Shown here: in pieces, positions 1 to 13,410 of the stretch
How positions within the stretch are numbered: position 1 is the stretch's first letter
Layout of the letters: each line of letters opens with the position of its first letter
NCBI RefSeq assembly: GCF_004114425.1
Contig: NZ_RDQF01000017.1
Span: 62,001 to 126,000 of the forward strand
Source: Bradyrhizobium vignae
GTDB lineage: Bacteria > Pseudomonadota > Alphaproteobacteria > Rhizobiales > Xanthobacteraceae
Length of the DNA stretch: 64,000 bases
Reading direction: 5' to 3'
Made by a program: the position numbers and the translations under genes
The notes under the pieces: model-generated
Told to the model about the DNA's origin: nothing
What the model saw: only the letters and a program-made list of their open reading frames with translations
The model's database searches: none

Positions 1-2018
1 AGGAAGTCGATCGTATTCAGCTTGGCATCGGTCGTGTTCAGGATCTGCTGCCAGCTCTTATATTCGGCCATTCTGGGCAATTTGAATGCGATCTCTTCGG
101 GGGCGGCGTTCAGGACGATAAAGATCGCAGCCCCGCCCGGTTCCATCGGGCCCATCACATAGGAGAGGAATCTGCCTTCCGGAAATTTCCAGTCGCTCTC
201 CGTCATCTCGTCGCCGGCGGGCGTCAGCCACAACGCACCGTAGGAGGCGCCGTCGTTGGGCCGGCCATCAAGCCAGCGATGGCTGCGCAGCTGCGAGAAC
301 CGGCGGCGGATGTCGGCGAGATGGGCGACGAAATCGACCATGTCGTCGCCCTCCTTGCCGAGATTGTCCCAGCCGACCCAGCCGACTTCGTTGTCCTGGC
401 AATAGGCGTTGTTGTTGCCGGATTGCGAGTTGCCGACCTCGTCGCCGGCGAGGATCAACGGAACGCCCTGCGCCAGCATCAGGCAGGCCAGCACGTTCTT
501 GCGCAGCTGCCGGCGCAGGCTGATGATGTTGGGATCGTCGGTCGGCCCCTCGACACCACAATTGTTGCTGTGATTGTCGTTGGAGCCGTCGCGATTGTCC
601 TCGCCATTGGCCTCGTTGTGCTTCTCGTTGTAGCTGAAGAGGTCGGCGAGGGTGAAGCCGTCGTGGACGGTGATGTGATTGATGCTGGCGCGCGGCCGGC
701 GTCCGTCGTGGTTGAACAGGTCGGACGACGCGGTCATACGGCTGGAAATGTCGCCGATCAGGCTGCCTTCGCCGCTCCAGTAGCGGCGCATGGCGCTGCG
801 ATAGCGATCGTTCCATTCCGACCATTGCGATGGGAAGGCGCCGACCTGGTAGCCGCCGAGCCCGAGGTCCCAGGGCTCCGCGACGAGCTTGACGGCCGCC
901 AGCACCGGGTCCTGCCGGACCGCGGTCAAGAACGAGCTGCCGCGATCAAAGCCGTGCGGTCCCCGCGCCAGCGTGGTGGCGAGGTCGAAACGGAAGCCAT
1001 CGACATGGCAGACCTCGACCCAGTAGCGCAGGGAATCCATCACCATCTGCAGCACGCGCGGGTGGGTGAGGTTCACCGACGAGCCGCAACCGGTGAAATC
1101 GTCGTAGTAGCGCGGGTTCTCGCGGTTCAGCCAGTAATAGGAGGCGTTGTCGATGCCGCGATAGCACAGGGTCGGGCCGAGGTGGTTACCCTCGGCGGTG
1201 TGGTTGTAGACGACGTCGAGCATCACTTCGATTCCGGCATCGTGCAGCCGCGCCACCGTGGTGCGGAAGGAATCGAGCGCGTTGTCCTGAGCGTAGCGCG
1301 GCTCGGGCGCGAAGAAGGACAGCGTGTTGTAGCCCCAGTAATTGGCGAGCTTCTTTTCCACGAGGATGCGGTCGTCGACGAAGCTGTGGATCGGCAACAG
1401 CTCGACCGTGGTGACTCCGAGCTTCTTCAGGTGCTCGATCATCGCCGGCGAGGACAGGCCGCCATAGGTGCCGCGCAAGTTCGGCGGCACGTCGTCGCGC
1501 GTCTGAGTGAGGCCCTTGACGTGGGCCTCGTAGATGATGGTGTCTTCCCAGGAGATGTTGGGACGGATCTCGCGGCGACCCCAGTTGAAGGTCTCGTCGA
1601 CCACGACGGCCTTCGGCATGCCGCGCGCATTGTCGCGCCGGTCGAAGGACAGGTCTTCGCGCGGTGAGCCGGTGCGATAGGCAAAATGCGCATCGCTCCA
1701 GACCAGCCGCCCGGCAAGCCGCTTGGCATAGGGGTCGAGCAGCAGCTTGTTGGCGTTGAAGCGATGGCCGTGCTCGGGCTCGTAGGGCCCGTGCACGCGA
1801 TAGCCGTAGAGCTGGCCGGGCGAGACGTCATTGAGATAGCCGTGCCAGACATCCTCGGTCTTCTCAGGCAGCTCGATACGCTCGAGCTCGCGGCGGCCTT
1901 GCGCGTCGAACAGGCAGAGCTCGACCCTCTGCGCGTTGGCGGAGAACAGCGCGAAATTGGTGCCGCGTCCGTCCCAGCTTGCGCCGAGCCGTGCGGGCGA
2001 TCCGGCGGTCAGGCGCAT
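1..2018 (-). CDS. glgX: Glycogen debranching enzyme GlgX (3' end off the left edge)
   Basis: Isoamylase-type GH13 enzyme that removes alpha-1,6 branches from glycogen in the cytoplasm. Translation from the ATG at 2018 begins MRLTAGSPARLGASWDGRG, the usual start of the N-terminal beta-sandwich (CBM48). GH13 catalytic motifs follow: GFRFDLATTL with the nucleophile Asp, LVAEPWDLG with the acid Glu, and ITVHDGFTL with the third Asp. About 672 codons are present and the frame is still open at base 1, so only a short C-terminal piece is missing. It starts 3 bp after the glgB stop and is the last visible gene of the glgE-like/treS/glgB/glgX run. The catalytic residues are intact, unlike in the glgE-like gene of the same operon. 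Confidence 0.93.
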   Translation of the reverse strand, partial: MRLTAGSPARLGASWDGRGTNFALFSANAQRVELCLFDAQGRRELERIELPEKTEDVWHGYLNDVSPGQLYGYRVHGPYEPEHGHRFNANKLLLDPYAKRLAGRLVWSDAHFAYRTGSPREDLSFDRRDNARGMPKAVVVDETFNWGRREIRPNISWEDTIIYEAHVKGLTQTRDDVPPNLRGTYGGLSSPAMIEHLKKLGVTTVELLPIHSFVDDRILVEKKLANYWGYNTLSFFAPEPRYAQDNALDSFRTTVARLHDAGIEVMLDVVYNHTAEGNHLGPTLCYRGIDNASYYWLNRENPRYYDDFTGCGSSVNLTHPRVLQMVMDSLRYWVEVCHVDGFRFDLATTLARGPHGFDRGSSFLTAVRQDPVLAAVKLVAEPWDLGLGGYQVGAFPSQWSEWNDRYRSAMRRYWSGEGSLIGDISSRMTASSDLFNHDGRRPRASINHITVHDGFTLADLFSYNEKHNEANGEDNRDGSNDNHSNNCGVEGPTDDPNIISLRRQLRKNVLACLMLAQGVPLILAGDEVGNSQSGNNNAYCQDNEVGWVGWDNLGKEGDDMVDFVAHLADIRRRFSQLRSHRWLDGRPNDGASYGALWLTPAGDEMTESDWKFPEGRFLSYVMGPMEPGGAAIFIVLNAAPEEIAFKLPRMAEYKSWQQILNTTDAKLNTIDF

Positions 2019-2021
2019 CGA

Positions 2022-4169
2022 TCAGCTTTCCGGAACGAGGAAGATCGCGGCGAGCGGCGGAATGGTGAGGCGGAGCTCGGGCGTCTTGCCGTCAACGGTC
2101 TGAACCTCGCCGATGTTCCCGACATTGCTGCCGCCGTAATGGGCGGAGTCGGAGTTGAACACCTCTTTCCACTTGCCGGCCAAAGGCACGCGGACGCGAT
2201 AGTTGCGATAGACATTGGGAGAGAAATTGACGACCACCAGACATCGCGCCTGCTCGTCAAAGCCCTTGCGCAGCCAGGCGAACACGTTGCGGTTGGCATC
2301 GTCGGTGATCAGCCATTCGAAGCCGGCCTGGTCGCAATCCATCTGGTGCAGCGCCGGCACGGCCCGGTAGAGCCGGTTGAGGTCGCGGATCAGCGCCTGG
2401 ATGCCGGAATGGTACTTGTATTCGAGCAGGTGCCAGTCGAGCGATTGATCGTGATTCCATTCGCTGCTCTGCGCGATTTCCGCGCCCATGAACAGCAGCT
2501 TCTTGCCGGGATGTCCGAACATGAAGCTGTAATAGGCGCGCAAATTGGCGAAGCGCTGCCACTCGTCGCCGGGCATGCGGCCGAGGATCGAACGTTTGCC
2601 GTGCACGACCTCGTCATGCGACAGCGGCAGGATGAAGTTCTCCGAGAACGCGTAGTGCAGGCCGAACAGGATCTCGCCGTGGTGGTGCTTGCGGTAGATC
2701 GGATCCTTGCTGATGTAGCTCAGCGTGTCGTGCATCCAGCCCATGTTCCACTTGTAGCCGAAGCCGAGCCCGCCGAATTCGACCGGGCGTGAGACCTGAG
2801 GCCAGGCAGTGGACTCCTCAGCCGCCGTGGTCGCCTGCGGGAAGCGGGCGAACACTTCCGTGTTGAAACGGCGCAGGAAGTTGATCGCCTCGATGTTCTC
2901 CCGCCCGCCATACTGGTTCGGAACCCATGCGCCGGGCGGCCGGCTGTAGTCGAGATACAGCATGGAGGCCACCGCGTCGACGCGCAGACCGTCGATCGCG
3001 TAACGCTCCAGCCAGAACAGTGCATTCGACACCAGGAAGTTCGTCACTTCGGTGCGGCCGTAATTGTAGATCAGCGTGCCCCAGTCGAGGTGGCGACCCT
3101 GGAGCGGGTTGGCGTGCTCGTAGAGCGAGGTGCCGTCGAAATGGCCGAGCCCGTGCGGATCATCCGGGAAATGGCCGGGCACCCAGTCGAGCAGCACGCC
3201 GATGCCCTCGCGGTGGCAGGCATCGACCAGTGTCGCAAAGTCATCGGGTGTGCCGAAGCGGCTGGTCGGCGCGTAGAGGCCGGTCGGCTGGTAGCCCCAG
3301 GAGCCGTCGAACGGATGCTCGCTGACGGGCAGGAATTCGAGATGGGTGAATCCCATGTCGCGGGCGTAGGCCGGCAGCTGCTCGGCCAGTTCGCGATAGG
3401 TGAGCCATTCATTGTTGCCCTTGCGCCGCCACGAGCCGAGATGGACCTCGTAGATCGACATCGGCGCCGACAGGGCATTGATGCCGTCGGGCGCCGGGCG
3501 CGGCCGCGGCAGACGCGCCTCGTCGAACACGATCGAAGCCGTCTTCGGCCGCAGCTCGCTGGCAAATGCCAGCGGATCGGATTTCAGCGGCAGCAGGTGG
3601 CCGTGCGGGCCGATGATCTCGAATTTGTAGTGATCGCCGGCCTTCGCATGCGGAATGAACAATTCCCAGTAACCGCTGCCGCGCACCCGCATCGGGTGAC
3701 GCCGCCCGTCCCAGAAGTTGAAGTCGCCGACCACGGATACGCGCCCCGCATTTGGCGCCAGCACCACGAAGCCGATGCCGTCCACGCCCTCGAGCCGCAT
3801 CGGATGCGCGCCGAGCTTGTCGTAGAGGCGCTGATGGGTGCCTTCGCCGAGCAGGTAGAGATCGAAATCGGTCAGGATCGGCGGAAAGCGGTAGGCATCC
3901 TCGAACTCGACGACGTCGTTGCCGAAGGTCGCGCGCAGCTGGTAGTGCTTCGAGCCATTGGGCAGGGCGCCGATGAACAGGCCGGAATCGTGCACGCGGT
4001 CGAGCGGAGCGACCTCGCCATGCTCGCCGACCGCCTCGACATTGGTGGCCTCGGGCAGAAACGCGCGCACCACGCTTTTGCCGCCCTCGGGATGCAGCCC
4101 GAGATAGTGGAAGGGATCGGAGTGGCGGCCCTCGATGATCGCATAGGCCTCGGCAGGCAATTTAGGCAT
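2022..4169 (-). CDS. glgB: 1,4-alpha-glucan branching enzyme GlgB
   Basis: Introduces alpha-1,6 branches into linear alpha-glucan (GH13). 715 aa, a normal length for GlgB with two N-terminal beta domains. Visible motifs: [39 protein letters not shown] with the nucleophile Asp, AEESTAW with the acid Glu, and [13 protein letters not shown] chose the ATG at 4169 ([11 protein letters not shown]), which overlaps the treS stop by 8 bp and has GAGAG upstream; an in-frame GTG at 4187 is an alternative. The overlap implies translational coupling to treS. Next to TreS-Mak it would branch the linear glucan made by a GlgE-type transferase. Confidence 0.96.
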
Positions 4170-7100
4170 GGGCTTCGCTCTCGGCACTGGACAGAATGCG
4201 AAGCAGTTCGGTCAGCGGCGCATGGAGCCCCTCAGGCCGGTGGGACAGCTCGTGCTCTACTTCGTCGAACGCTTGATCAAGCAGGAAAAACCTTAACAGG
4301 CCTCGCGTTGATGGCCGATCTTCCGGCCACAGCCTCCGGTCGGTCATGGCTTCGCGGTAGGCGGATAGGAAGGTCGCGGTGGCGCGTTCGCGCCATTCGT
4401 CGAGCGCGGCGACGAGCCGGCCCTGCTCGTCGGAGGCGCCCGTGAGCGCGCGACTGAGGGCCGCGTTAACCGAAACGTCGATCGAGTGGATCAGGCCCGC
4501 GACGTCGCGGGCGGCCGGAGCCTTGCGCCGCTTGTCGACCAGTGGCACGCGCGGATCGCCGTCGAAATCGATGATGAAGATGTCGTCCTTCACGATCAGA
4601 GTTTGCCCGAGGCGGAAGTCGCCATGATGACGGATGTTCAACCCACGGGTCCCGGAAGGCAATAGCGCATTCAGCCGGTCGGACAGGCCCGCACGCGTCT
4701 CCGTAAGCCGATCGATCAGCGGCCGGTGCGCCTCCGGCAGGCCGTGGCGGCTGTCGGCCAGCCGTTCGAAAACCTGCTCGGCGCGAGCCTTGAGGTCGGA
4801 TACGAGGCGCGCGATGCATGCGGAATCGATCGGCTCCGGAGCGAGCTCGTCCGGTCTTGCCGCGGCGAGGGCGACATGCAGCTCGGCGAGCCGCCGGCCG
4901 ATCTGCGCGATGAAATGCAGATACGGCGCCTGCTCCTGGGTTTCGCGTGGCATCTTATCGGCCGGCGCCACGCGCTGCTCGTCGATATAACGATCGAGAT
5001 AGCCCGTGGTCACCGTCCAGCCGTCGCCCTGGTTCTCGACATAGGCATGCAGCACGCCGAGCGCGCTGCGCTGGTCGCCGTCGACCAGCTCGACGCTGCC
5101 GAGCAGCGCCGGTGTGTTGGCGAAGCGCGCGACCTCGGTGAGATAGTGGCCGATCTCGATCTCGGGGCTGATGCCGCTTTCGAGCCGGCGATAGATCTTG
5201 GCGACGTACTGGTTGTCGACCAGCGCGGTGCTGTTCGACTGCTCGATCGCACGGATGCGCCCGGGCTCCTTGATCGTGTAATCGGCGAAGCGGCTGGTGG
5301 CCTTGAACTCCAGCCGCAGATTGTTCTCTTCCACCACGAGATTCTGCGACAGATTGCGCAGGAACAGGCCGATGAAGATCTGCTCGGTCGCGACATCGAG
5401 CAGCGTGCCTTCGCGCGCGCCCTGGCGCACGGCGGCCAGCGCTTTCGGGTTGAAGCGCTCGCGGTCGAAGCGCACCCACTCGATCTGTAGCGGCAGTACG
5501 TAGCGTGTGGTCGCGTCCCCCTGCCTGGTCTCGAAAAACGCGATCCAGGGGCGGTTGTCGCCGATGTCGCAGAACGGTACCGCAGAGGTCAACGCGGTCT
5601 TGATCTGCTTGGGATTGTGCTCGGGGAACCAACGCGTCCGTGACAGAAATCCCGGCAGCACGTCGCGCTCGAACACGCCGCGCTCGCGGGCAAGCGACAC
5701 CCAGTTCGAGTTCACCGGGACCACCAGCGTCTCGAACTCCGGCACCGCGCTCGGCGTCACCGGCTCGGACTTGTCGCGCTCCAGAAGCTGGAACCAGTAG
5801 AAGCCATAGGGCCCCAGCGTGATCATGTAAGGCAGTTCGCCGATCGGGGGAAAGCGGGTGCGGCCGAGCATCTCCTGCGGGATGCGGTCCTTCCACGGCG
5901 ACAGGTCGAGCTCGGTCGCTTGCGCGGCACGGGAGAGATTGGCGACGCAGAGGATCACCTCGTCGCGATACTGCCGGACATAGGCCAGCACGGCGCGGTT
6001 GGCCGGGCGGATGAAGGTCATGGTGCCGCGGCCGAAGGCGAGCGTCGACTTGCGCACCGAGATCAGCCGCTTGGTGGCGCTGAGCAGCGACGACAGGCTG
6101 CGCGACTGTGCCTCCACGTTCACCGACTCATAGCCATAGACCGGGTCCATGATCAGCGGCGCGTAGAGGCGGGCCGGATCGCAGCGCGAGAAACCGCCGT
6201 TGCGGTCCGGGCTCCATTGCATCGGCGTGCGCACGCCGTTGCGGTCGCCGAGATAGATGTTGTCGCCCATCCCGATCTCGTCGCCGTAATAGATGATCGG
6301 CGTGCCGGGGAACGACAGCAGCAGCGAGTTCATCAGCTCGATCTTGCGGCGGTCGTTGTCCATCAGCGGCGCAAGGCGCCTGCGAATGCCGACATTGATG
6401 CGCGCGCGGGGATCGTTGGCGTAGGTGGTCCAGAGATAGTCGCGCTCGACGTCGGTGACCATCTCCAGCGTCAGCTCGTCGTGGTTGCGCAGGAACAGCG
6501 CCCATTGGCAGCTCGCCGGGATGTCCGGCGTCTGGCGCAGGATGTCGGTGATCGGGAAGCGGTCCTCCTGTGCGATCGCCATGTAGATGCGCGGCATCAG
6601 CGGGAAGTGATAGGCCATGTGGCACTCGTCGCCACGGCCGAAATATTCCTGCACGTCCTCTGGCCATTGATTGGCCTCGGCCAGCAGCAGCTTGCCTTTG
6701 GAATACGCATCGAGCTCCTGGCGCAGGCGCTTGATGATCGCATGCGTCTCGGGGAGGTTCTCGTTCGAGGTGCCCTCGCGCTCGCAGAGATAGGGAATGG
6801 CATCGAGGCGGAATCCGTCGACGCCGGCATCGAGCCAGCGCTTCATCACCTGGATGATAGCGCTGACCACGCGCGGATTGTCGAAATTGAGGTCCGGCTG
6901 GTGCGAGAAGAAACGGTGCCAGTAGAACGCGCCGGCCTCGGGATCCCAGGTCCAGTTCGACTTCTCCGTATCGGTGAAGATGATGCGCGTGCCCTGGTAT
7001 TTCTGGTCGGTGTCGCTCCAGACGTACCAGTTGCGCGCGCTGGAGCCTGGATGGCTGCGCCGCGCGCGCTTGAACCACTTGTGCTGGTCCGAAGTGTGGT

Positions 7101-7455
7101 TGACGACGAGCTCGGTGATGACGCGCAGGCCGCGCTTCTGCGCCTCCTGGATGAAGCGCTTGAAATCCTTCATCGTCCCGAAATCGGGATTGACCGACCC
7201 GTAGTCGGCGATGTCGTAGCCGTCGTCGCGGCCGGGCGAGGGATAGAACGGCAGCAGCCACAGCGCGGTGACGCCGAGCTCCTGGAGGTAAGGCAGCTTC
7301 TCGGTCAGTCCGGCGAAGTCGCCGATGCCGTCATTATTGCTGTCGGCAAAAGCCTTGACGTGGAGCTGATAGATGATGGCATCCTTGTACCAGAGCTCAT
7401 CCACGACCTCGGCAGCCTCGGCTTTTTTGGCATCGACGGAAGACAGGACATTCAT
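4162..7455 (-). CDS. treS: Trehalose synthase-maltokinase fusion (TreS-Mak/Pep2)
   Basis: Bifunctional protein of 1097 aa. The N-terminal ~560 residues are a GH13 trehalose synthase interconverting trehalose and maltose: motifs [40 protein letters not shown] (nucleophile), LLLAEANQW (acid) and FLRNHDEL. The C-terminal ~500 residues are a maltokinase with an aminoglycoside-phosphotransferase-like fold: [11 protein letters not shown] catalytic loop and IIDFDGDP metal-binding motif. Together they would turn trehalose into maltose-1-phosphate, the GlgE substrate. The start is the ATG at 7455 ([14 protein letters not shown]); the open frame extends further upstream but without family similarity. 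It lies 11 bp downstream of the glgE-like gene. All catalytic residues expected of both domains are present. Confidence 0.95.
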
Positions 7456-7466
7456 GGCGTGAACCC

Positions 7467-9413
7467 TTACGCCAGGCCGCGGAATAGAAGCGCCGGATCG
7501 CGCTCTGGATCGATACGCAATCTGATTCCGCCCCATTCGATGCAGGACCGCTCGCCGGTGACGAGGTTTTCGAGTGTCGTCACATGGTGTCGCTGCCCGC
7601 CGACGTCAATGGTGACGTCGCCGAGCGGCAGCCAGAATTCGCGCACGTGGCGCGACAGCGCGATCACGACGATGACGGCATTGTCCGGCTCGGCCGTCTG
7701 CTTCACGAAGGCAATGGTTTCGCCATCCTCGACGCCGAGGAAGCGCAGATTGACCGTCTGCCGGAGCGCCGCGTTCTCGGTGCGGATGCGATTGAGCGCG
7801 GCGATGTAGGGCTTGATGTTGCCGGGCTTGTCCCAGTCGCGCGGCTTGATCCGATATTTCTCGGAATCCAGATATTCTTCGCGGCCGGGAATGGCCTCAT
7901 GCTCGAGGAGCTCGAATCCGCCAAAGATGCCGTAATTGCCCGAGAGCGTCGCCGCCAGTGCGATGCGCGACTTGAATGCCCAGGCCTCTCCGCTCTGGAG
8001 ATGATAAGGCAGCAGGTCGGCCGTGTTGACGAACAGGTTCGGACGATAGAACTCGCGCTCGGGATAGCGCGTCAGCTCGCCGAGATATTGCTCCAGCTCC
8101 CACCTTTCCGTGCGCCAGGGGAAATAGGTGAACGACTGCGCAAAGCCGAGCTTGGCGAGGCCGTTCATCAGCTTCGGCCGTGCATAGGTCTTGGAGAACA
8201 GGATCACCTCCGGATGCCGGCGGCGGATGTCGTGGATCAGCCACTCCCAGAATGGAAGCGGCGCGGTGTCGTGATTGTCGATGGCGAAGATGGTGACGCC
8301 ATGGTCGATCCAGAACAGCATGGCGTCGCGAAACGCATTCCACAGGCCGGTGCGATCCACCGAGGCGAAATCGGGAATGACGATGTCGGAATAAGGGCCG
8401 TCGGCCGTCCGTACCGAGCGGTCCGGCCGCCATTTGAACCATTCCGGATGCTGAGTCATCCAGGGATGGTCCGGCGAGCACTGCACCGCGAAGTCCAGTG
8501 CGAGCTCGAGCCCGTACTCGAGGCATGTGGCGACCAGCGCGCGAAAATCCTCGATCGTGCCGAGCTCGGGATGCAGCGCATCGTGGCCGCCCTCGGCCGA
8601 GCCGATCGCATAGGGCGAGCCCGGATCGCCCTCATTTGCCACCGGCGCGTCGTTGCGGCCCTTGCGGCTTGTGTGACCGATCGGGTGGATCGGCGTGAAG
8701 TAGAGCACGTCAAAGCCCATGGCAGCGATGTCGGGCACGCGCGCGATGCAGTCGCGCAGCGTGCCATGCCGGCCCGGCAATGCGCTCTGGCTGCGCGGCA
8801 TCATCTGATACCAGGCGCTAGAGCGCGCCTTGTCGCGGTCTATGCTCAGCGGGAAGAGTGGTGAGCGGGTGAGGTCGGGGCGCGACTGGCTCTCGGCCAT
8901 CGCTGTGCCGAGCTCGGCTGCGAGCAGTGAGGCGACGTCGCCGTTCCTCAGATAGTCCTCGCATTGCCTGATGATGACCGCTGCCGCGTCCTGCCGCGCG
9001 CCATGCGCCTTGGTCAAAAGGCCCGCGCCCTCGATGGCATCGAGGCTGACATCGGCCCCGGTACGCCGCTTGCGCGCGACCGCGTGCGACCAGGTGGCGA
9101 ACTCGTCGGTCCAGGCTTCGATCGCGTAGACATATTGGCCGGGCTCAACGGGCGTGAACGCGCCGCACCAGCGGTCGTTGCCGTGATGGGTCATCGGCTC
9201 GCTCCGCCATTCGCGGTCCTGCTCTCCTCGCCAGATCAGCGCGGCGGCGATCACGGCCTCGCCGTCGCGGTAGATGTCGGCCCAGACCTCGACCGGTTCG
9301 CCGGCGATCCGCTTCACGGCGAAGCGGCCGCCGTCGATCGAGGGATAGACGTCCTCGATCAGGAAAGCGCTGCCGGCTGCGGCACTTTCGACAGTTTGAA
9401 TTGTCTTGTTCAC
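7467..9413 (-). CDS. GlgE-like maltosyltransferase with substituted catalytic residues
   Basis: 648 aa with GlgE architecture: an N-terminal beta domain (IEDVYPSIDGGRFAVKRI), a helical insert, then a GH13 barrel. GlgE moves maltose from maltose-1-phosphate onto alpha-1,4-glucan. Similarity to the family is clear in FWEWLIHDIRRRHPEV, ARPKLMNGLAKLGFAQS, TADLLPY and GIFGGFELLEHEAI. The catalytic centre differs: it reads FAIDNHDTAP where GlgE has FRVDNPHTKP, so the invariant Arg is Ala377 while nucleophile Asp379 remains. Exactly 29 residues on, the acid/base Glu is Lys408 (LFSKTYARPK). The third Asp (TADLLP, ~466) is present. Start is the GTG at 9413; no strong Shine-Dalgarno is visible. It could be an inactive or repurposed GlgE, so I give no symbol. 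Family assignment is firm; activity is doubtful. Confidence 0.85.
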   Translation of the reverse strand: MNKTIQTVESAAAGSAFLIEDVYPSIDGGRFAVKRIAGEPVEVWADIYRDGEAVIAAALIWRGEQDREWRSEPMTHHGNDRWCGAFTPVEPGQYVYAIEAWTDEFATWSHAVARKRRTGADVSLDAIEGAGLLTKAHGARQDAAAVIIRQCEDYLRNGDVASLLAAELGTAMAESQSRPDLTRSPLFPLSIDRDKARSSAWYQMMPRSQSALPGRHGTLRDCIARVPDIAAMGFDVLYFTPIHPIGHTSRKGRNDAPVANEGDPGSPYAIGSAEGGHDALHPELGTIEDFRALVATCLEYGLELALDFAVQCSPDHPWMTQHPEWFKWRPDRSVRTADGPYSDIVIPDFASVDRTGLWNAFRDAMLFWIDHGVTIFAIDNHDTAPLPFWEWLIHDIRRRHPEVILFSKTYARPKLMNGLAKLGFAQSFTYFPWRTERWELEQYLGELTRYPEREFYRPNLFVNTADLLPYHLQSGEAWAFKSRIALAATLSGNYGIFGGFELLEHEAIPGREEYLDSEKYRIKPRDWDKPGNIKPYIAALNRIRTENAALRQTVNLRFLGVEDGETIAFVKQTAEPDNAVIVVIALSRHVREFWLPLGDVTIDVGGQRHHVTTLENLVTGERSCIEWGGIRLRIDPERDPALLFRGLA

Positions 9414-9617: not shown

Positions 9618-11579
9618 ATGGATCTTTTAGCTCAAGCCCGGATCAAGGGCGTTCAGTCCGAATTCATCGACGCTCTCGGCAAGCTGCGGGTCACCGCGCC
9701 CGAGGCTCTCAAATCCATCCTCGAGGCGCTGCCGGAGAAGCGGGTTTACAGCTTCGCCAGCGGGCCGGTCGTGGTGCGTGCGCTGGGACATCCGCGCACG
9801 GAATTGGCTTCTATCGGCACGCCGCCGCTGCAATGGAAAATCCTCGGCAACGGCAATGTGATCGCCCAGGGCGAGACGCGCGAGCCCGTGATCGCCTGGC
9901 CCGCCGGCCTGCCACTCGGCTATCACCGCCTGACGCTGACGGATGCCGCGGGCGTGACCGAAGAGGTACCGATGATCGTGGCGCCGGAGCGCGCCTTCGG
10001 CGGCGATTTCGATCGCGGCTGGCTGCTTGCCGTGCAGCTCTACAGCGTCCGTTCGGACCGCAACTGGGGCATCGGCGACTTCACCGATCTCGCCGGGCTG
10101 GTCCGGCTTGCCAAGCAGCTCGGGGCCGACGGCGTCGGCCTCAATCCGCTGCATGTCCTGTTCGACGACCACCCCGCCGATTGCAGCCCCTATTCGCCGA
10201 ACAGCCGGCTCTTCCTCAACCCGCTCTACATCGACGTCGAGGCGATTCCCGAATTCTCGGCAGACCTCGTGCCCAACGCGGCCGCGACGGCGGCCCGTCT
10301 GCGCGAAGGTGATCGCGTCCCTTATGCCGACATGGCGGCGTTGAAATGGCTGGGCCTGCGCGCCGCCTTTGACAGCTTCGTGACGAGCGCGAGCCAGGCG
10401 CGCCGCAAGGCGTTTGACGGCTTCCGCGCCGCTCGCGCGCCGCTGTTGTCCCGCTTTGCCTGCTTCGAGGTGCTGCGGCATCGCTTCAACGCACCCTGGT
10501 GGGAGTGGCCATCCGAATGGCAACAGCCGGACGAGGCCAAATGCACCGAGCTGCGCAATGGCCCGGGCAAGCGCGAGATCGAGTTCGTCGAATTCGTGCA
10601 ATGGACGGCCGACAGCCAATTGCATGCCGCCAAGGAGCTCGCCAGCCAGCTCGGCATGCGGGTCGGGCTCTATCTCGACGTCGCCGTCGGCGTGCAGTCC
10701 AACGGCTTCGATGCCTGGAACGAGCAGAAGGCGATTTCCCGCCATCTCGCCGTCGGCGCGCCGCCCGACGTGCTCAACACCATCGGCCAGGACTGGGGTC
10801 TCGCCGGTTTCAACGCCGGTGGGCTCGAGGCGCAGTCCTTCGTGCCGTTCGCCGACATGCTCGCAGCGTCGATGCGCCATGCCGGCGCCATCAGGCTCGA
10901 TCACGTGCTGGGTCTGAAGCGGCTTTATCTGGTGCCGCGCGGCTTCAAGCCCGATAACGGTGCCTATGTGCAGATGCCGTTCGAGGCGCTGCTGGCGGCC
11001 GTCGCGTGCGAGAGCGCGGCCCACAAATGCATCGTGATCGGCGAGGACCTCGGCACCGTGCCTGAAGGTTTCCGCGAGATGATGCAGGATTTCGGCATCT
11101 GGTCCTACCTCGTCATGATGTTCGAGCGCGACGATGCCGGCCATTTCCGCAACGTCGACCACTACCGGCCCAACGCGCTGGTGACGCTGAACACGCATGA
11201 CCTGTGCACCTATGCCGGCTGGCGCTCCTTCAGCGACCTCAAGATGAAGCGCTCGCTCGGGCTCGATCCCGGCGAGAACGACCAGGCGCGCTGGGATGCG
11301 CTCGGCAGGCTCGACGAGATCCTGCGCCAGAACGGCATCGGCGCCAACGACCTCTATTCGGTGCTCGCCTTCCTGTCGCGCACGCCCTCTCGCCTGCTCG
11401 CGGTGTCCATGGAGGATCTGCTCGGTGTGATCGACCAGCCCAACATTCCCGGCACGATCGACGAGCATCCGAACTGGCGCCAGCGCCTTCCTGTTGCGCT
11501 CGACAAGATCGCGTCCAAGATCGATCTCGCGGCTTTGAAGGCCGCGACGCGGGAACGTTCCTTGCCCGGCGGGAGTTGA
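9618..11579 (+). CDS. malQ: 4-alpha-glucanotransferase MalQ
   Basis: Amylomaltase (GH77), 653 aa, disproportionating maltodextrins in the cytoplasm. Motifs: QLYSVRSDRNWGIGDFTDLA, GVGLNPLHVLF, GLYLDVAVGVQ, AIRLDHVLGL with the nucleophile Asp, CIVIGEDLGTVPEGFR with the acid Glu, and LNTHDLCTYAGW with the third Asp. The ATG at 9618 (MDLLAQARIKG) has no obvious Shine-Dalgarno. It is transcribed away from the glgE-like operon from a shared intergenic region and followed after 28 bp by a GH15 gene, so the pair probably processes maltodextrins released by GlgX and phosphorylase. Confidence 0.95.
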   Translation: MDLLAQARIKGVQSEFIDALGKLRVTAPEALKSILEALPEKRVYSFASGPVVVRALGHPRTELASIGTPPLQWKILGNGNVIAQGETREPVIAWPAGLPLGYHRLTLTDAAGVTEEVPMIVAPERAFGGDFDRGWLLAVQLYSVRSDRNWGIGDFTDLAGLVRLAKQLGADGVGLNPLHVLFDDHPADCSPYSPNSRLFLNPLYIDVEAIPEFSADLVPNAAATAARLREGDRVPYADMAALKWLGLRAAFDSFVTSASQARRKAFDGFRAARAPLLSRFACFEVLRHRFNAPWWEWPSEWQQPDEAKCTELRNGPGKREIEFVEFVQWTADSQLHAAKELASQLGMRVGLYLDVAVGVQSNGFDAWNEQKAISRHLAVGAPPDVLNTIGQDWGLAGFNAGGLEAQSFVPFADMLAASMRHAGAIRLDHVLGLKRLYLVPRGFKPDNGAYVQMPFEALLAAVACESAAHKCIVIGEDLGTVPEGFREMMQDFGIWSYLVMMFERDDAGHFRNVDHYRPNALVTLNTHDLCTYAGWRSFSDLKMKRSLGLDPGENDQARWDALGRLDEILRQNGIGANDLYSVLAFLSRTPSRLLAVSMEDLLGVIDQPNIPGTIDEHPNWRQRLPVALDKIASKIDLAALKAATRERSLPGGS

Positions 11580-11607: not shown

Positions 11608-13410
11608 TTGGCTCAGAGGATCGAGGACTATGCGCTGATCGGCGATTGCGAGACCGCGGCGCTGGTCGGGCGCAACGGCTCGATCGACTGGCTGTGCTGG
11701 CCTGCCTTCGATTCCGATGCCTGCTTTGCCGCCATCCTCGGCACGCACAAGAACGGGCGCTGGCTGATCGCGCCGAGTGAGCACGCGACCCGCATCTCGC
11801 GGCGCTATCTCGGCAATACCCTCATCCTCGAAACGTGTTTTGAGACGAGTAGCGGCACCGTCGCGCTGATCGACTTCATGCCGCCGCGCGGCAAGGCCTC
11901 GGACATCGTGCGGCTGGTCCGAGGCGTCAGCGGCACCGTGAAGATGCGGATGGAGCTCGTCATCCGCTTCGGCTTCGGCGCCGACATTCCCTGGGTGCGG
12001 CGAATGGATCATGCGCTGCTCGCGATCTGCGGCCAGGACATGACGGTGCTGCGAACACCCGTCGAGACCCGCGGCGAGGACCTGACGACAGTTGCCGAGT
12101 TCGACGTCGGGGCGGGCGAGACCGTCCCGTTCGTCCTGACCTACGGCCCCTCGCATCTCGAGCCGCCGGCATCGATCGATCCGGAGCTCGCCTTCCAGGA
12201 GACCGAGAAATTCTGGCAGGACTGGTGCGGCCATTGTGCCCGCGACGGCGGCTATCAGGACCTCGTCTTGCGCTCGCTGATCACACTGAAGGCGCTGACC
12301 TTTGCTCCGACCGGCGGCATCGTCGCGGCCCCCACCACCTCCTTGCCGGAAAGGCTGGGGGGAAGCAGGAATTGGGACTACCGCTTCTGCTGGCTGCGCG
12401 ACGCCACGTTCACGTTGCTGGCGCTGATGAACTCGGGCTACACCGAGGAAGCCTCGGCCTGGCACAGTTGGCTGCTGCGCGCCGCCGCCGGATCGCCGGC
12501 GAACATGCAGATCATGTACGGCATCTGGGGCCAGCGGCGGCTGCTGGAATGGGAGGCGGGCTGGCTCGGCGGCTACGAGGGCGCGCAGCCCGTGCGCGTC
12601 GGCAACGCCGCGCATGCGCAGCTCCAGCTCGACGTCTATGGCGAGCTGATCGATGCCTTCCACCAGTCGCGCATGGCCAAGCTCAAGCTCGACGAGCAGA
12701 CCTGGGCGCTGGAATGCGCCGTGCTCAATCATCTGGCCGAGGTCTGGGACCGGCCCGACCACGGTATCTGGGAGCGGCGCGGACAGCCCAAGCATTATGT
12801 CTTCTCCAAGGTCATGACCTGGGTCGCCTTCGACCGCGGCATCAAGAGTGCCGAGACCTTCGGCTTCAAGGCGCCGCTGCTGCATTGGCGCACTCTGCGT
12901 GAGGCGATCCATCGCGACGTCTGCAACAACGGCTTCGATGCAGAGGAAAACGCCTTCGTCGAATCCTACGGCTCGAAACTGCTCGATGCCAGCGTGCTGC
13001 TGCTGCCGGCCGTCGGCTTCCTGCCGCCATCGGATCCGCGCATCCGCGGCACCATTGCTTCCGTCGAAAAATGCCTGATGCGCGACGGCTTCGTGCTACG
13101 GCACGATCCACGCGAGCTGCCAGCGGGGCAGCCACCGCTCGAAGGCGCGTTCCTGGCCTGCAGCCTGTGGCTCGCCGACGCCTATGTGCTGTCGGGCGAT
13201 CTCGACAAGGCGCAAGCCTTGTTCGATCGCGTCGTGGGCATTGCGAACGATGTCGGGCTGCTGGCGGAGGAATACGACTCCGTGGCCCGCCGGCAGACCG
13301 GCAATTTCCCGCAGGCGCTGACCCACATCGCCCTGATCAACACCGCGCATAACCTCTCGGCGGCAAGACGGAAGAGCGAGAAGCCGGCGATGCAGCGGTC
13401 GAAGAAGTGA
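11608..13410 (+). CDS. Glycoside hydrolase family 15 protein (glucoamylase/trehalase-like)
   Basis: 600 aa. Starts with TTG (MAQRIEDYALIGDCETAALV), matching the typical N terminus of bacterial GH15 proteins, which supports this unusual start. The all-alpha catalytic domain shows NWDYRFCWLRDATFTLLAL, DHGIWERRGQPKHYVFSK with the likely acid Glu, and EEYDSVARRQTGNFPQAL near the likely base Glu. Family members are inverting glucan 1,4-alpha-glucosidases or trehalases; sequence alone does not decide between these. No signal peptide, so cytoplasmic. It follows malQ by 28 bp, so hydrolysis of short maltodextrins or trehalose to glucose is the simplest role. Confidence 0.9.
   Translation: MAQRIEDYALIGDCETAALVGRNGSIDWLCWPAFDSDACFAAILGTHKNGRWLIAPSEHATRISRRYLGNTLILETCFETSSGTVALIDFMPPRGKASDIVRLVRGVSGTVKMRMELVIRFGFGADIPWVRRMDHALLAICGQDMTVLRTPVETRGEDLTTVAEFDVGAGETVPFVLTYGPSHLEPPASIDPELAFQETEKFWQDWCGHCARDGGYQDLVLRSLITLKALTFAPTGGIVAAPTTSLPERLGGSRNWDYRFCWLRDATFTLLALMNSGYTEEASAWHSWLLRAAAGSPANMQIMYGIWGQRRLLEWEAGWLGGYEGAQPVRVGNAAHAQLQLDVYGELIDAFHQSRMAKLKLDEQTWALECAVLNHLAEVWDRPDHGIWERRGQPKHYVFSKVMTWVAFDRGIKSAETFGFKAPLLHWRTLREAIHRDVCNNGFDAEENAFVESYGSKLLDASVLLLPAVGFLPPSDPRIRGTIASVEKCLMRDGFVLRHDPRELPAGQPPLEGAFLACSLWLADAYVLSGDLDKAQALFDRVVGIANDVGLLAEEYDSVARRQTGNFPQALTHIALINTAHNLSAARRKSEKPAMQRSKK

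What the first reader, a model, noticed from the sequence alone, without database searches (positions are those of the whole stretch)
7467..9413. GlgE homologue with substituted GH13 catalytic residues in an otherwise intact GlgE-pathway operon
Seen: the motif normally FRVDNPHTKP reads FAIDNHDTAP. The nucleophile Asp379 is kept, but the GH13-invariant Arg two residues before it is Ala377. Twenty-nine residues after the nucleophile, the same spacing as D394 to E423 in Streptomyces coelicolor GlgE, the acid/base Glu is Lys408 (codon AAG on the minus strand, 8192-8190). The downstream Asp (~466) and much of the fold signature are conserved, and the frame is intact. Known: those Arg and Glu residues are needed for GH13 chemistry. 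Inference: the protein is inactive as a maltosyltransferase or has a new role (glucan-binding scaffold, regulator of TreS-Mak or GlgB, or altered chemistry), and maltose-1-phosphate must be used by another GlgE or not at all.
Basis: partly seen in the sequence, partly recalled or inferred. Interest (0 to 1): 0.75.

Follow-up and report, generated by a model that had tools for sequence, protein, structure and literature searches.

The report
Retained but inactive glycogen-building enzyme
Many Bradyrhizobium soil bacteria carry a glycogen-building enzyme (GlgE) that has lost its catalytic and phosphate-binding residues, and the partner kinase that should make its fuel has lost residues of its own active site, so a branch of the pathway appears to be switched off while the proteins are kept, perhaps for another use.

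Summary
In detail: the window's only GlgE (7467-9413, minus) has R392A and E423K (Streptomyces numbering) and keeps D394 and D480. The signature (FA.DNHD.AP, Lys for the acid/base Glu) occurs in 97 of 195 Bradyrhizobium genomes, none with a canonical motif. The 60 such proteins read also lack phosphate-site Lys355 but keep most of the maltose (-2) subsite. The gene is under purifying selection (median dN/dS 0.16).

The maltokinase domain fused to TreS next door is degenerate too (H307R, E324D, E326D, K413Q, Y416D, Y420H). In the loci read, the 13-residue kinase signature is intact in 28 of 28 with canonical GlgE and in 0 of 95 with altered or missing GlgE; those 95 include a second GlgE clade and 39 GlgE-less genomes with other kinase lesions. 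TreS motifs stay intact.

Best reading: the maltose-1-phosphate branch was dismantled several times. Here GlgE survives as a pseudoenzyme, perhaps a glucan-binding partner of TreS-Mak/GlgB; that role is inferred. GlgC-GlgA, MalQ, GlgX and TreYZ can cover glucan metabolism.

The parts
7467..9413 (-). GlgE pseudoenzyme gene (648 aa; fold and N/S domain of GlgE, catalytic and phosphate sites lost)
8283..8285 (-). codon 377, Ala in place of the -1 subsite Arg392
   Evidence: A in 58 of 60 family sequences, T and S in one each
8277..8279 (-). codon 379, former nucleophile Asp394 (kept here; Ala or Val in 3 of 60 relatives)
8268..8273 (-). codons 381-382, new His-Asp (P396H, H397D), invariant in 60 of 60
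8190..8192 (-). codon 408, Lys in place of acid/base Glu423, invariant in 60 of 60
8391..8399 (-). codons 339-341 (Gly-Pro-Tyr): phosphate-site loop; N352G, with P354-K355-K356 deleted
   Evidence: phosphate-site roles from PMC4526890 passages
4162..7536 (-). treS-mak fusion (ORF of 1124 aa; several relatives align only from residue 26-28, so the true start may be near 7455): TreS domain intact, Mak domain degenerate
4612..4614 (-). Mak R975 = H307R (catalytic loop HGDFRLGQ)
   Evidence: position counted from the motif printed; one search's three labels for this motif are one residue too far on
4555..4563 (-). Mak D992 and D994 = E324D, E326D (DFDGDP for DFEGEP)
4252..4275 (-). Mak Q1088, D1091, H1095 = K413Q, Y416D, Y420H (maltose pocket)
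2022..4187 (-). glgB branching enzyme, family matches above cut-off
1..2018 (-). glgX (cut by the window end); treZ and treY follow outside the window (L280)
9618..11579 (+). malQ, divergent; 4-alpha-glucanotransferase

Best explanation
The protein is a GlgE pseudoenzyme. The maltose-1-phosphate (M1P) branch of this operon (maltose + ATP to M1P by Mak; M1P to glucan by GlgE) has been shut down at both ends: Mak lost its maltose pocket, and GlgE lost its phosphate-site Lys and Asn, its acid/base Glu and its -1 subsite Arg. TreS still interconverts trehalose and maltose. Maltose and glucan can be handled by MalQ, GlgX and TreYZ, and glycogen can be built by GlgC-GlgA-GlgB. Shown here: residue losses, co-variation, intact frames, purifying selection, gene-specific rate increase. 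Inferred from published mutants: lack of activity. Inferred only: the retained role, most likely a maltose/alpha-glucan-binding subunit that holds or tunes the TreS-Mak/GlgB machinery on glucan (I put about 0.4 on that role within this reading; the confidence below is for the switched-off branch).
For: Alignment and site tables: R392, E423 and K355 lost in 60 of 60; -2 subsite K264, A282, D359, K534, Y535 and acceptor W448 kept in 60 of 60. Mak tables: H307R, E324D and loss of Y416 in 38 of 38 loci, K413 lost in 35 of 38. Canonical GlgE goes with an intact 13-residue Mak signature in 28 of 28 loci read (25 genomes, one of another genus); altered or absent GlgE in 0 of 95 loci (38+17; 40, one of them read only in part). 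The 13 positions were chosen from the 21 as those conserved in canonical loci, so the independent tests are 0 of 40; 54 of 63 exact. Single genomic GlgE. GlgC, two GlgA, GlgX, TreYZ present. Median dN/dS 0.158. dN to an outgroup raised 1.50x in GlgE and 1.56x in Mak but 0.97x in TreS. TreS motifs kept in 164 of 165 rows, repeats included; the other row is the paralogue L002. A catalytically dead E423A GlgE still binds malto-octaose in crystals (PMC5076824, section 9).
Against: No biochemistry. D379 is kept in 57 of 60, D466 and N380 in 60, and positions 381, 382 and 408 are strictly conserved, which could mean a new site rather than a dead one. Retention of the -2 subsite is no better than for other positions conserved in canonical GlgE (154 of 191 kept), and the window has N268D, so glucan binding is not proven; the p of 0.03 used sites chosen after I had seen them conserved. 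H397, the +1 acceptor contact, is lost in 60 of 60 and R449 in 4 of 60. 40 of 195 genomes have no GlgE found, and one altered copy (G078) has a broken frame, so slow loss is a live alternative. AlphaFold confidence is moderate (pLDDT 81) and no coordinates were available to measure the site.
Confidence: 0.8

Rival explanations
1. New catalytic or ligand-binding function: the remodelled pocket (A377, H381, D382, A384, K408) does different chemistry or binds a different anionic ligand, and the Mak domain changed substrate in step.
For: H381, D382 and K408 invariant in 60 of 60; 15 fixed differences, many of them at the active site; a Mak homologue with a DFD loop is a glucosamine kinase (PMC6520443 passages).
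Against: The nucleophile D379 is Ala or Val in 3 of 60. Mak position 416 varies (D, N, E, H, V, G) and 413 too, unlike a new specificity. The glucosamine-kinase D-x-H motif is not kept (HGDFRLGQ).
Confidence: 0.1
2. Slow decay (shares the switched-off branch with the best reading and differs only in the retained role): with M1P no longer made, GlgE and Mak are under weakened constraint and on the way to loss; the low dN/dS reflects folding constraint or recent inactivation.
For: dN raised most in GlgE and Mak; 40 of 195 genomes show no GlgE; G078 has a broken copy (fragments of both halves).
Against: 96 of 97 altered copies have intact frames at a median within-clade dS of 0.53 (37 loci, pairs with dS 0.1-1.0); dN/dS is 0.16 against 0.12 in canonical GlgE; K408, H381 and D382 are invariant.
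Confidence: 0.25
3. Still an active GlgE with unusual residues (relocated acid/base, for example D382, or disproportionation only).
For: D379 and D466 kept in the window protein; D382 is a new invariant acid.
Against: E423 mutation causes loss of activity in S. coelicolor and D394 is the proven nucleophile (PMC5076824 passages); K355 and N352 of the phosphate site are gone; H397 contacts O2 of the +1 sugar, so D382 is not obviously placed to act on the glycosidic oxygen (my inference); three members lack even the nucleophile.
Confidence: 0.04

Closest known systems
GlgE, alpha-1,4-glucan:maltose-1-phosphate maltosyltransferase (GH13_3; S. coelicolor 3zss, M. tuberculosis 4u33)
   Same: Full-length homology (phmmer E about 5e-140), same fold in the model (Foldseek TM-score 0.76 to 5lgw), N/S domain, most of the -2 subsite, D394, D480
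   Different: Arg392, Glu423, Asn352, His397 and Lys399 replaced and Lys355 deleted
Catalytically dead ScGlgE variants E423A and D394A
   Same: Dead GlgE that still binds malto-octaose (E423A, PMC5076824 section 9) or M1P (D394A, title of 4cn1) in crystals
   Different: Laboratory mutants; here a natural clade with several further changes, including the phosphate site
Maltokinase Mak/Pep2 (4u94) and TreS-Mak fusions (P. aeruginosa, E. lausannensis)
   Same: Same fusion and same Mg/ATP residues (K149, D305, Q310, D322)
   Different: Maltose pocket K413, Y416, Y420 and catalytic-loop H307 lost in the window; those two fusions are shown active (PMC8084333 and PMC7935935, passages)
Pseudoenzymes in general (for example iRhoms, pseudonucleases; abstract starts)
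   Same: Conserved, frame-intact homologue without catalytic residues
   Different: Two consecutive enzymes of one pathway altered together, more than once

Membership tests
GlgE (active M1P maltosyltransferase) | GlgE fold with N/S domain | tested here: met
   PF11896 179.6 bits (cut-off 25); Foldseek best hits are GlgE structures; GLGE_C scored 19.8, below its cut-off of 27, and no NCBIfam GlgE model was hit
GlgE (active M1P maltosyltransferase) | nucleophile Asp394 | tested here: met
   D379 in the window; 57 of 60 altered sequences
GlgE (active M1P maltosyltransferase) | acid/base Glu423 | tested here: not met
   K408; K in 60 of 60
GlgE (active M1P maltosyltransferase) | -1 subsite Arg392 | tested here: not met
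   A377
GlgE (active M1P maltosyltransferase) | phosphate site N352, K355, Y357, N395 | tested here: not met
   N352G, K355 deleted; Y357 and N395 kept
GlgE (active M1P maltosyltransferase) | -2 maltose subsite (K264, N268, D359, K534, Y535) | tested here: met
   Four of these five kept in the window; N268 is Asp (52 of 60 have Asn)
GlgE (active M1P maltosyltransferase) | transferase activity with M1P | not testable with these tools
   no biochemistry
Maltokinase (Mak) domain of TreS-Mak | ATP/Mg residues K149, D305, Q310, D322, S136, N137 | tested here: met
   all six kept in the window
Maltokinase (Mak) domain of TreS-Mak | maltose pocket K413, Y416, Y420 and H307 | tested here: not met
   Q, D, H and R
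Trehalose synthase TreS | GH13 catalytic motifs and family score | tested here: met
   TIGR02456 911.6 bits (cut-off 678); motifs intact

The most novel reading that the evidence does not exclude
In Bradyrhizobium the toxic-intermediate pair Mak-GlgE has been switched off jointly several times by different lesions, and in the clade of the window both dead enzymes were kept and re-used: an ATP-binding pseudo-maltokinase fused to TreS and a glucan-binding pseudo-maltosyltransferase act as a nucleotide- and glucan-responsive regulator or scaffold of trehalose-maltose interconversion.
Probability: 0.35. Interest if true: 0.8.

Novelty: new variant of a known kind. Interest (0 to 1): 0.62.

Why it matters
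GlgE and maltokinase are studied as drug targets because blocking GlgE leaves toxic M1P. Bradyrhizobium offers natural cases in which the pair was disabled without being lost, with the kinase altered in each locus read where GlgE is altered. Annotation by similarity would credit about half the sampled Bradyrhizobium genomes (97 of 195), probably including the soybean symbiont B. diazoefficiens USDA110, with a GlgE pathway that the residues say is dead. That bears on published trehalose and treS mutant work in that strain, and it gives a tractable system for asking what dead carbohydrate enzymes do.

Tried and rejected
Second GlgE elsewhere in the genome: none. The only other hit is a 36% match over 126 residues to another GH13-like protein. 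In six further genomes, chosen for extra or odd hits, there was likewise no second full-length GlgE.

Horizontal replacement: rejected for the altered clade. Gene order is malQ-divergent / glgE / treS-mak / glgB in the altered, canonical and third-type loci (some cut by the locus end; the five-genome group L120-L122, L133, L134 lacks malQ and glgB there), and the altered clade nests inside canonical Bradyrhizobium GlgE with SH-aLRT 100 (columns of the trait left out).

Sequencing error or one odd genome: rejected.

A sigma-EcfG-like site (GGAAC-N15-18-NGTT) upstream of glgE: 0 of 118 upstream regions. This says nothing about looser sites.

Active-site geometry from the AlphaFold models: not possible, because no coordinates were exposed. 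I could not test whether K408 pairs with D382.

Conservation test of retained ligand sites (p 0.03): discounted, since the sites were picked after seeing them conserved.

Independent-pairs test: the Mak trait was entered as identical to the GlgE trait, because they coincide in the rows read, so only the number of independent contrasts (4 on supported branches, 7 on the best tree) is informative, not the p.

Literature. Listings seen by title and start of abstract only: GlgE with Bradyrhizobium, 8 of 8 papers; 20 of 41; 12 of 134; GlgE, pseudoenzyme, maltokinase, inactive, catalytic residues; 12 of 70; blr6766/6767/6768/bll6765; 1 of 1; 7 of 7; TreS-Mak terms; 12 of 17. I saw nothing there on inactive GlgE or Mak homologues; PMC7935935 holds neither 'glgE2' nor 'inactive', and the 12 of 66 passages seen of PMC11046441 do not mention it. 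Unlisted papers were not seen, and the library lacks most subscription journals.

Full report
Observation. The ORF 7467-9413 minus encodes 648 aa with no internal stop. It is a full-length GlgE homologue: Pfam GlgE domain N/S 179.6 bits (the C-terminal GlgE model scored 19.8, below its cut-off of 27), PDB chains of S. coelicolor GlgE at E about 5e-140, and a predicted model (pLDDT 81, pTM 0.80) whose best Foldseek matches are GlgE structures, TM-score about 0.76. According to PMC4526890 (passages), N352, K355, Y357 and N395 bind the phosphonate of a substrate analogue and R392 contacts O2' of the -1 sugar. PMC5076824 (passages) calls D394 the unequivocally demonstrated nucleophile and reports loss of activity on mutation of E423.

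How common. The genus g1 is Bradyrhizobium: one of its contigs (G103, 283063 bases) has the same length as a named B. sp. CSA112 contig, and the named close relatives agree. In 195 genus genomes (window genome included) 168 have some match; by my count 13 of those are only weak matches to other GH13 proteins, leaving 155 with a GlgE or pieces of one. By DNA pattern, FA.DNHD.AP occurs in 92 of 195 and FR.DNPH..P in 56 of 195, with no genome in both sets. Five more altered genomes have variant motifs and were read directly (L095, L097, L098, L099, L106), giving 97. Of the rest, 26 fall in a 'third' similarity band (17 read), 31 in the canonical band (24 read), one (G083) is a separate variant, and 40 show no GlgE. 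In the order-wide sample (249 genomes) 24 of the 45 full-length matches outside the genus were returned as loci and aligned; all 24 are canonical at R392, D394, E423 and K355. G187 has a contig of 9105828 bases, which I recall as the size of B. diazoefficiens USDA110; its glgE is of the altered type.

What changed and what did not (60 distinct altered sequences, from 60 of the 97 genomes; a further one, G078, is broken and was left out). E423 is K in 60; R392 is A in 58 (T and S in one each); K355 is absent in 58 and Gly in 2; N352 is G in 55 and never Asn; P396H and H397D in 60; K399A in 59. Y357 is kept in 59. The nucleophile is kept in 57 and is Ala or Val in 3. K264, A282, D359, K534 and Y535 of the -2 subsite, N395, W448 and D480 are kept in 60; S279 in 57; R449 in 56; N268 in 52 (Asp in the window); Q324 in 59. 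Of 191 positions conserved at 93% or more in 49 canonical sequences, 154 are kept at that level and 24 are lost, many of them at the active site. The retained -2 subsite is therefore in line with the general background and is suggestive, not proof, of glucan binding.

The kinase next door. TreS-Mak (4162-7536) has an intact TreS domain (TIGR02456 911.6 bits; motifs intact). Its Mak domain carries H307R, E324D, E326D, K413Q, Y416D and Y420H (M. vanbaalenii numbering). PMC4306142 (passages) reports that mutating K413, Y416 or Y420 practically abolishes maltokinase activity, that H307 lines a putative substrate pocket, and that mutating S136 costs 97%. In the 38 altered-type loci read, H307R and E324D are present and Y416 is lost in 38; K413 is lost in 35; Y420 in only 4. 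The ATP/Mg residues K149, N137, D305, Q310 and D322 are kept in 38 of 38 and S136 in 32. In the third GlgE clade (17 loci: K355Q in 17, Y357W in 16; R392, D394 and D480 kept in 17 and E423 in 16, Gly in L119) the Mak lesion is a different one: S136 is Pro or Ala and N137 is His in 17, while K413, Y416 and Y420 are kept in 17. G083 (L246) has GlgE K355E, Y357C, H397Q and W448S, with R392, D394 and E423 kept, and Mak S136R, Q310E, E326N and Y416A. Of the 40 genomes without GlgE, 39 still have a TreS-Mak match (the miss, G035, is an 80% complete assembly). All 39 of those loci were read, one (L279) only in part, and none has an intact Mak signature; S136 is lost in all 38 where it could be read. 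In 35 of the 39, malQ lies in the same fetched stretch with no glgE found beside treS; in L262, L275, L278 and L279 the stretch does not reach malQ, so absence there rests on the genome search, and some assemblies are incomplete. All 28 canonical loci, from 25 genomes after removing repeats (one, L135, of another genus), match M. vanbaalenii Mak at all 13 positions. These 13 were picked from the 21 positions as the ones conserved in canonical loci, so that figure is partly built in; and the next control were run with the list fixed. As that control, 63 of 68 broad-set loci with a Mak have canonical GlgE (one of them, L151, is again the G103 genome); 54 of the 63 match all 13 positions, eight differ at one, and one was cut short.

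History and selection. In the GlgE tree (71 rows, trait columns left out) the altered clade (21 rows) is one branch with SH-aLRT 100, inside canonical Bradyrhizobium GlgE; the third clade is another (99). On a TreS+GlgB tree (86 rows, quick method) intact GlgE needs 7 changes, with 4 independent contrasts on well supported branches. Since Mak and GlgE states coincide in the rows read, each contrast is a joint change; the sign test there is not informative. Pairwise NG86 dN/dS in the altered clade (37 loci, pairs with dS 0.1-1.0) has medians of 0.158 for glgE, 0.043 for TreS, 0.223 for Mak, 0.080 for GlgB and 0.128 for MalQ; canonical glgE is 0.121 and Mak 0.167. dN to the outgroup L135 is 1.50 times the canonical value for altered glgE and 1.56 for Mak, but 0.97 for TreS, 1.19 for GlgB and 1.16 for MalQ; for the third clade the ratios are 1.43, 1.37, 0.98, 1.09 and 1.16. 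So constraint fell mainly in the two M1P enzymes but is far from absent; 96 of 97 altered copies have open frames (G078 is broken).

Setting. The genes run glgE, treS-mak, glgB, glgX, treZ, treY on one strand, with malQ and a trehalase-like gene on the other. Elsewhere the genome has glgC-glgA and a second glgA. So glycogen can be made without M1P. In P. aeruginosa, with an intact pathway, deleting glgE raises M1P about eightfold (PMC8084333 passages), and in M. tuberculosis the accumulation is toxic (PMC4526890 abstract start). The simplest account of the coincidence is that a cell without GlgE cannot keep an active Mak, or that both became useless once M1P was no longer needed. In B. [quoted passage not shown]

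Interpretation. Most likely the window protein is a pseudoenzyme in a dismantled M1P branch. A dead ScGlgE (E423A) still holds malto-octaose across the -2 to +6 subsites (PMC5076824 section 9), so a glucan-binding partner role is physically reasonable. Loss of H397 and the absence of any binding or interaction data keep this an inference. Slow decay is the main rival for the retained role, and new chemistry a lesser one. In the third clade, which keeps the GH13 residues but not the phosphate site, a switch to M1P-independent disproportionation is possible; GlgE is known to disproportionate malto-oligosaccharides without M1P (PMC11046441 passages).

Limits. No activity was measured. Classification of genomes outside those read rests on motif patterns and similarity bands. 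The structure models gave no coordinates. The papers searched are an open-access subset.

Noticed in passing
L040-L045, L047, L107, L116-L119, L123-L127: A second, independently derived Bradyrhizobium GlgE clade (17 read) keeps R392, D394 and D480 (E423 lost only in L119) but has lost the phosphate site (N352 mostly His, K355Q, Y357 mostly Trp), with a Mak that lost S136 and N137; possibly an M1P-independent transglycosylase.
   Followed up: partly
G083 (L246, L232, L234): A third, separate GlgE variant in one genome: K355E, Y357C, H397Q and W448S, with Mak S136R, Q310E and Y416A.
   Followed up: partly
L240-L245, L247-L279: 39 Bradyrhizobium genomes in which no GlgE was found keep a TreS-Mak fusion whose Mak active site is degenerate (one locus read only in part); why the dead kinase domain is kept is unexplained.
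   Followed up: partly
L120-L122, L133, L134: A distinct Bradyrhizobium group has canonical GlgE followed by a Mak with an intact signature that is only 38-40% identical to the window's Mak, with no malQ or usual glgB in the fetched stretch.
   Followed up: no
window 11608-13410 (+): Trehalase-like gene (best NCBIfam match 372 bits, below its cut-off of 820) downstream of malQ.
   Followed up: no
L280:949-4644 (-): A 1231-aa ORF beyond treY has a bacterial Ku match only in residues 941-1193; probably a Ku gene with a long upstream extension or fusion.
   Followed up: no
L051 (G078): One altered-type glgE is split by a frame break, and its treS-mak also appears as two frames.
   Followed up: no
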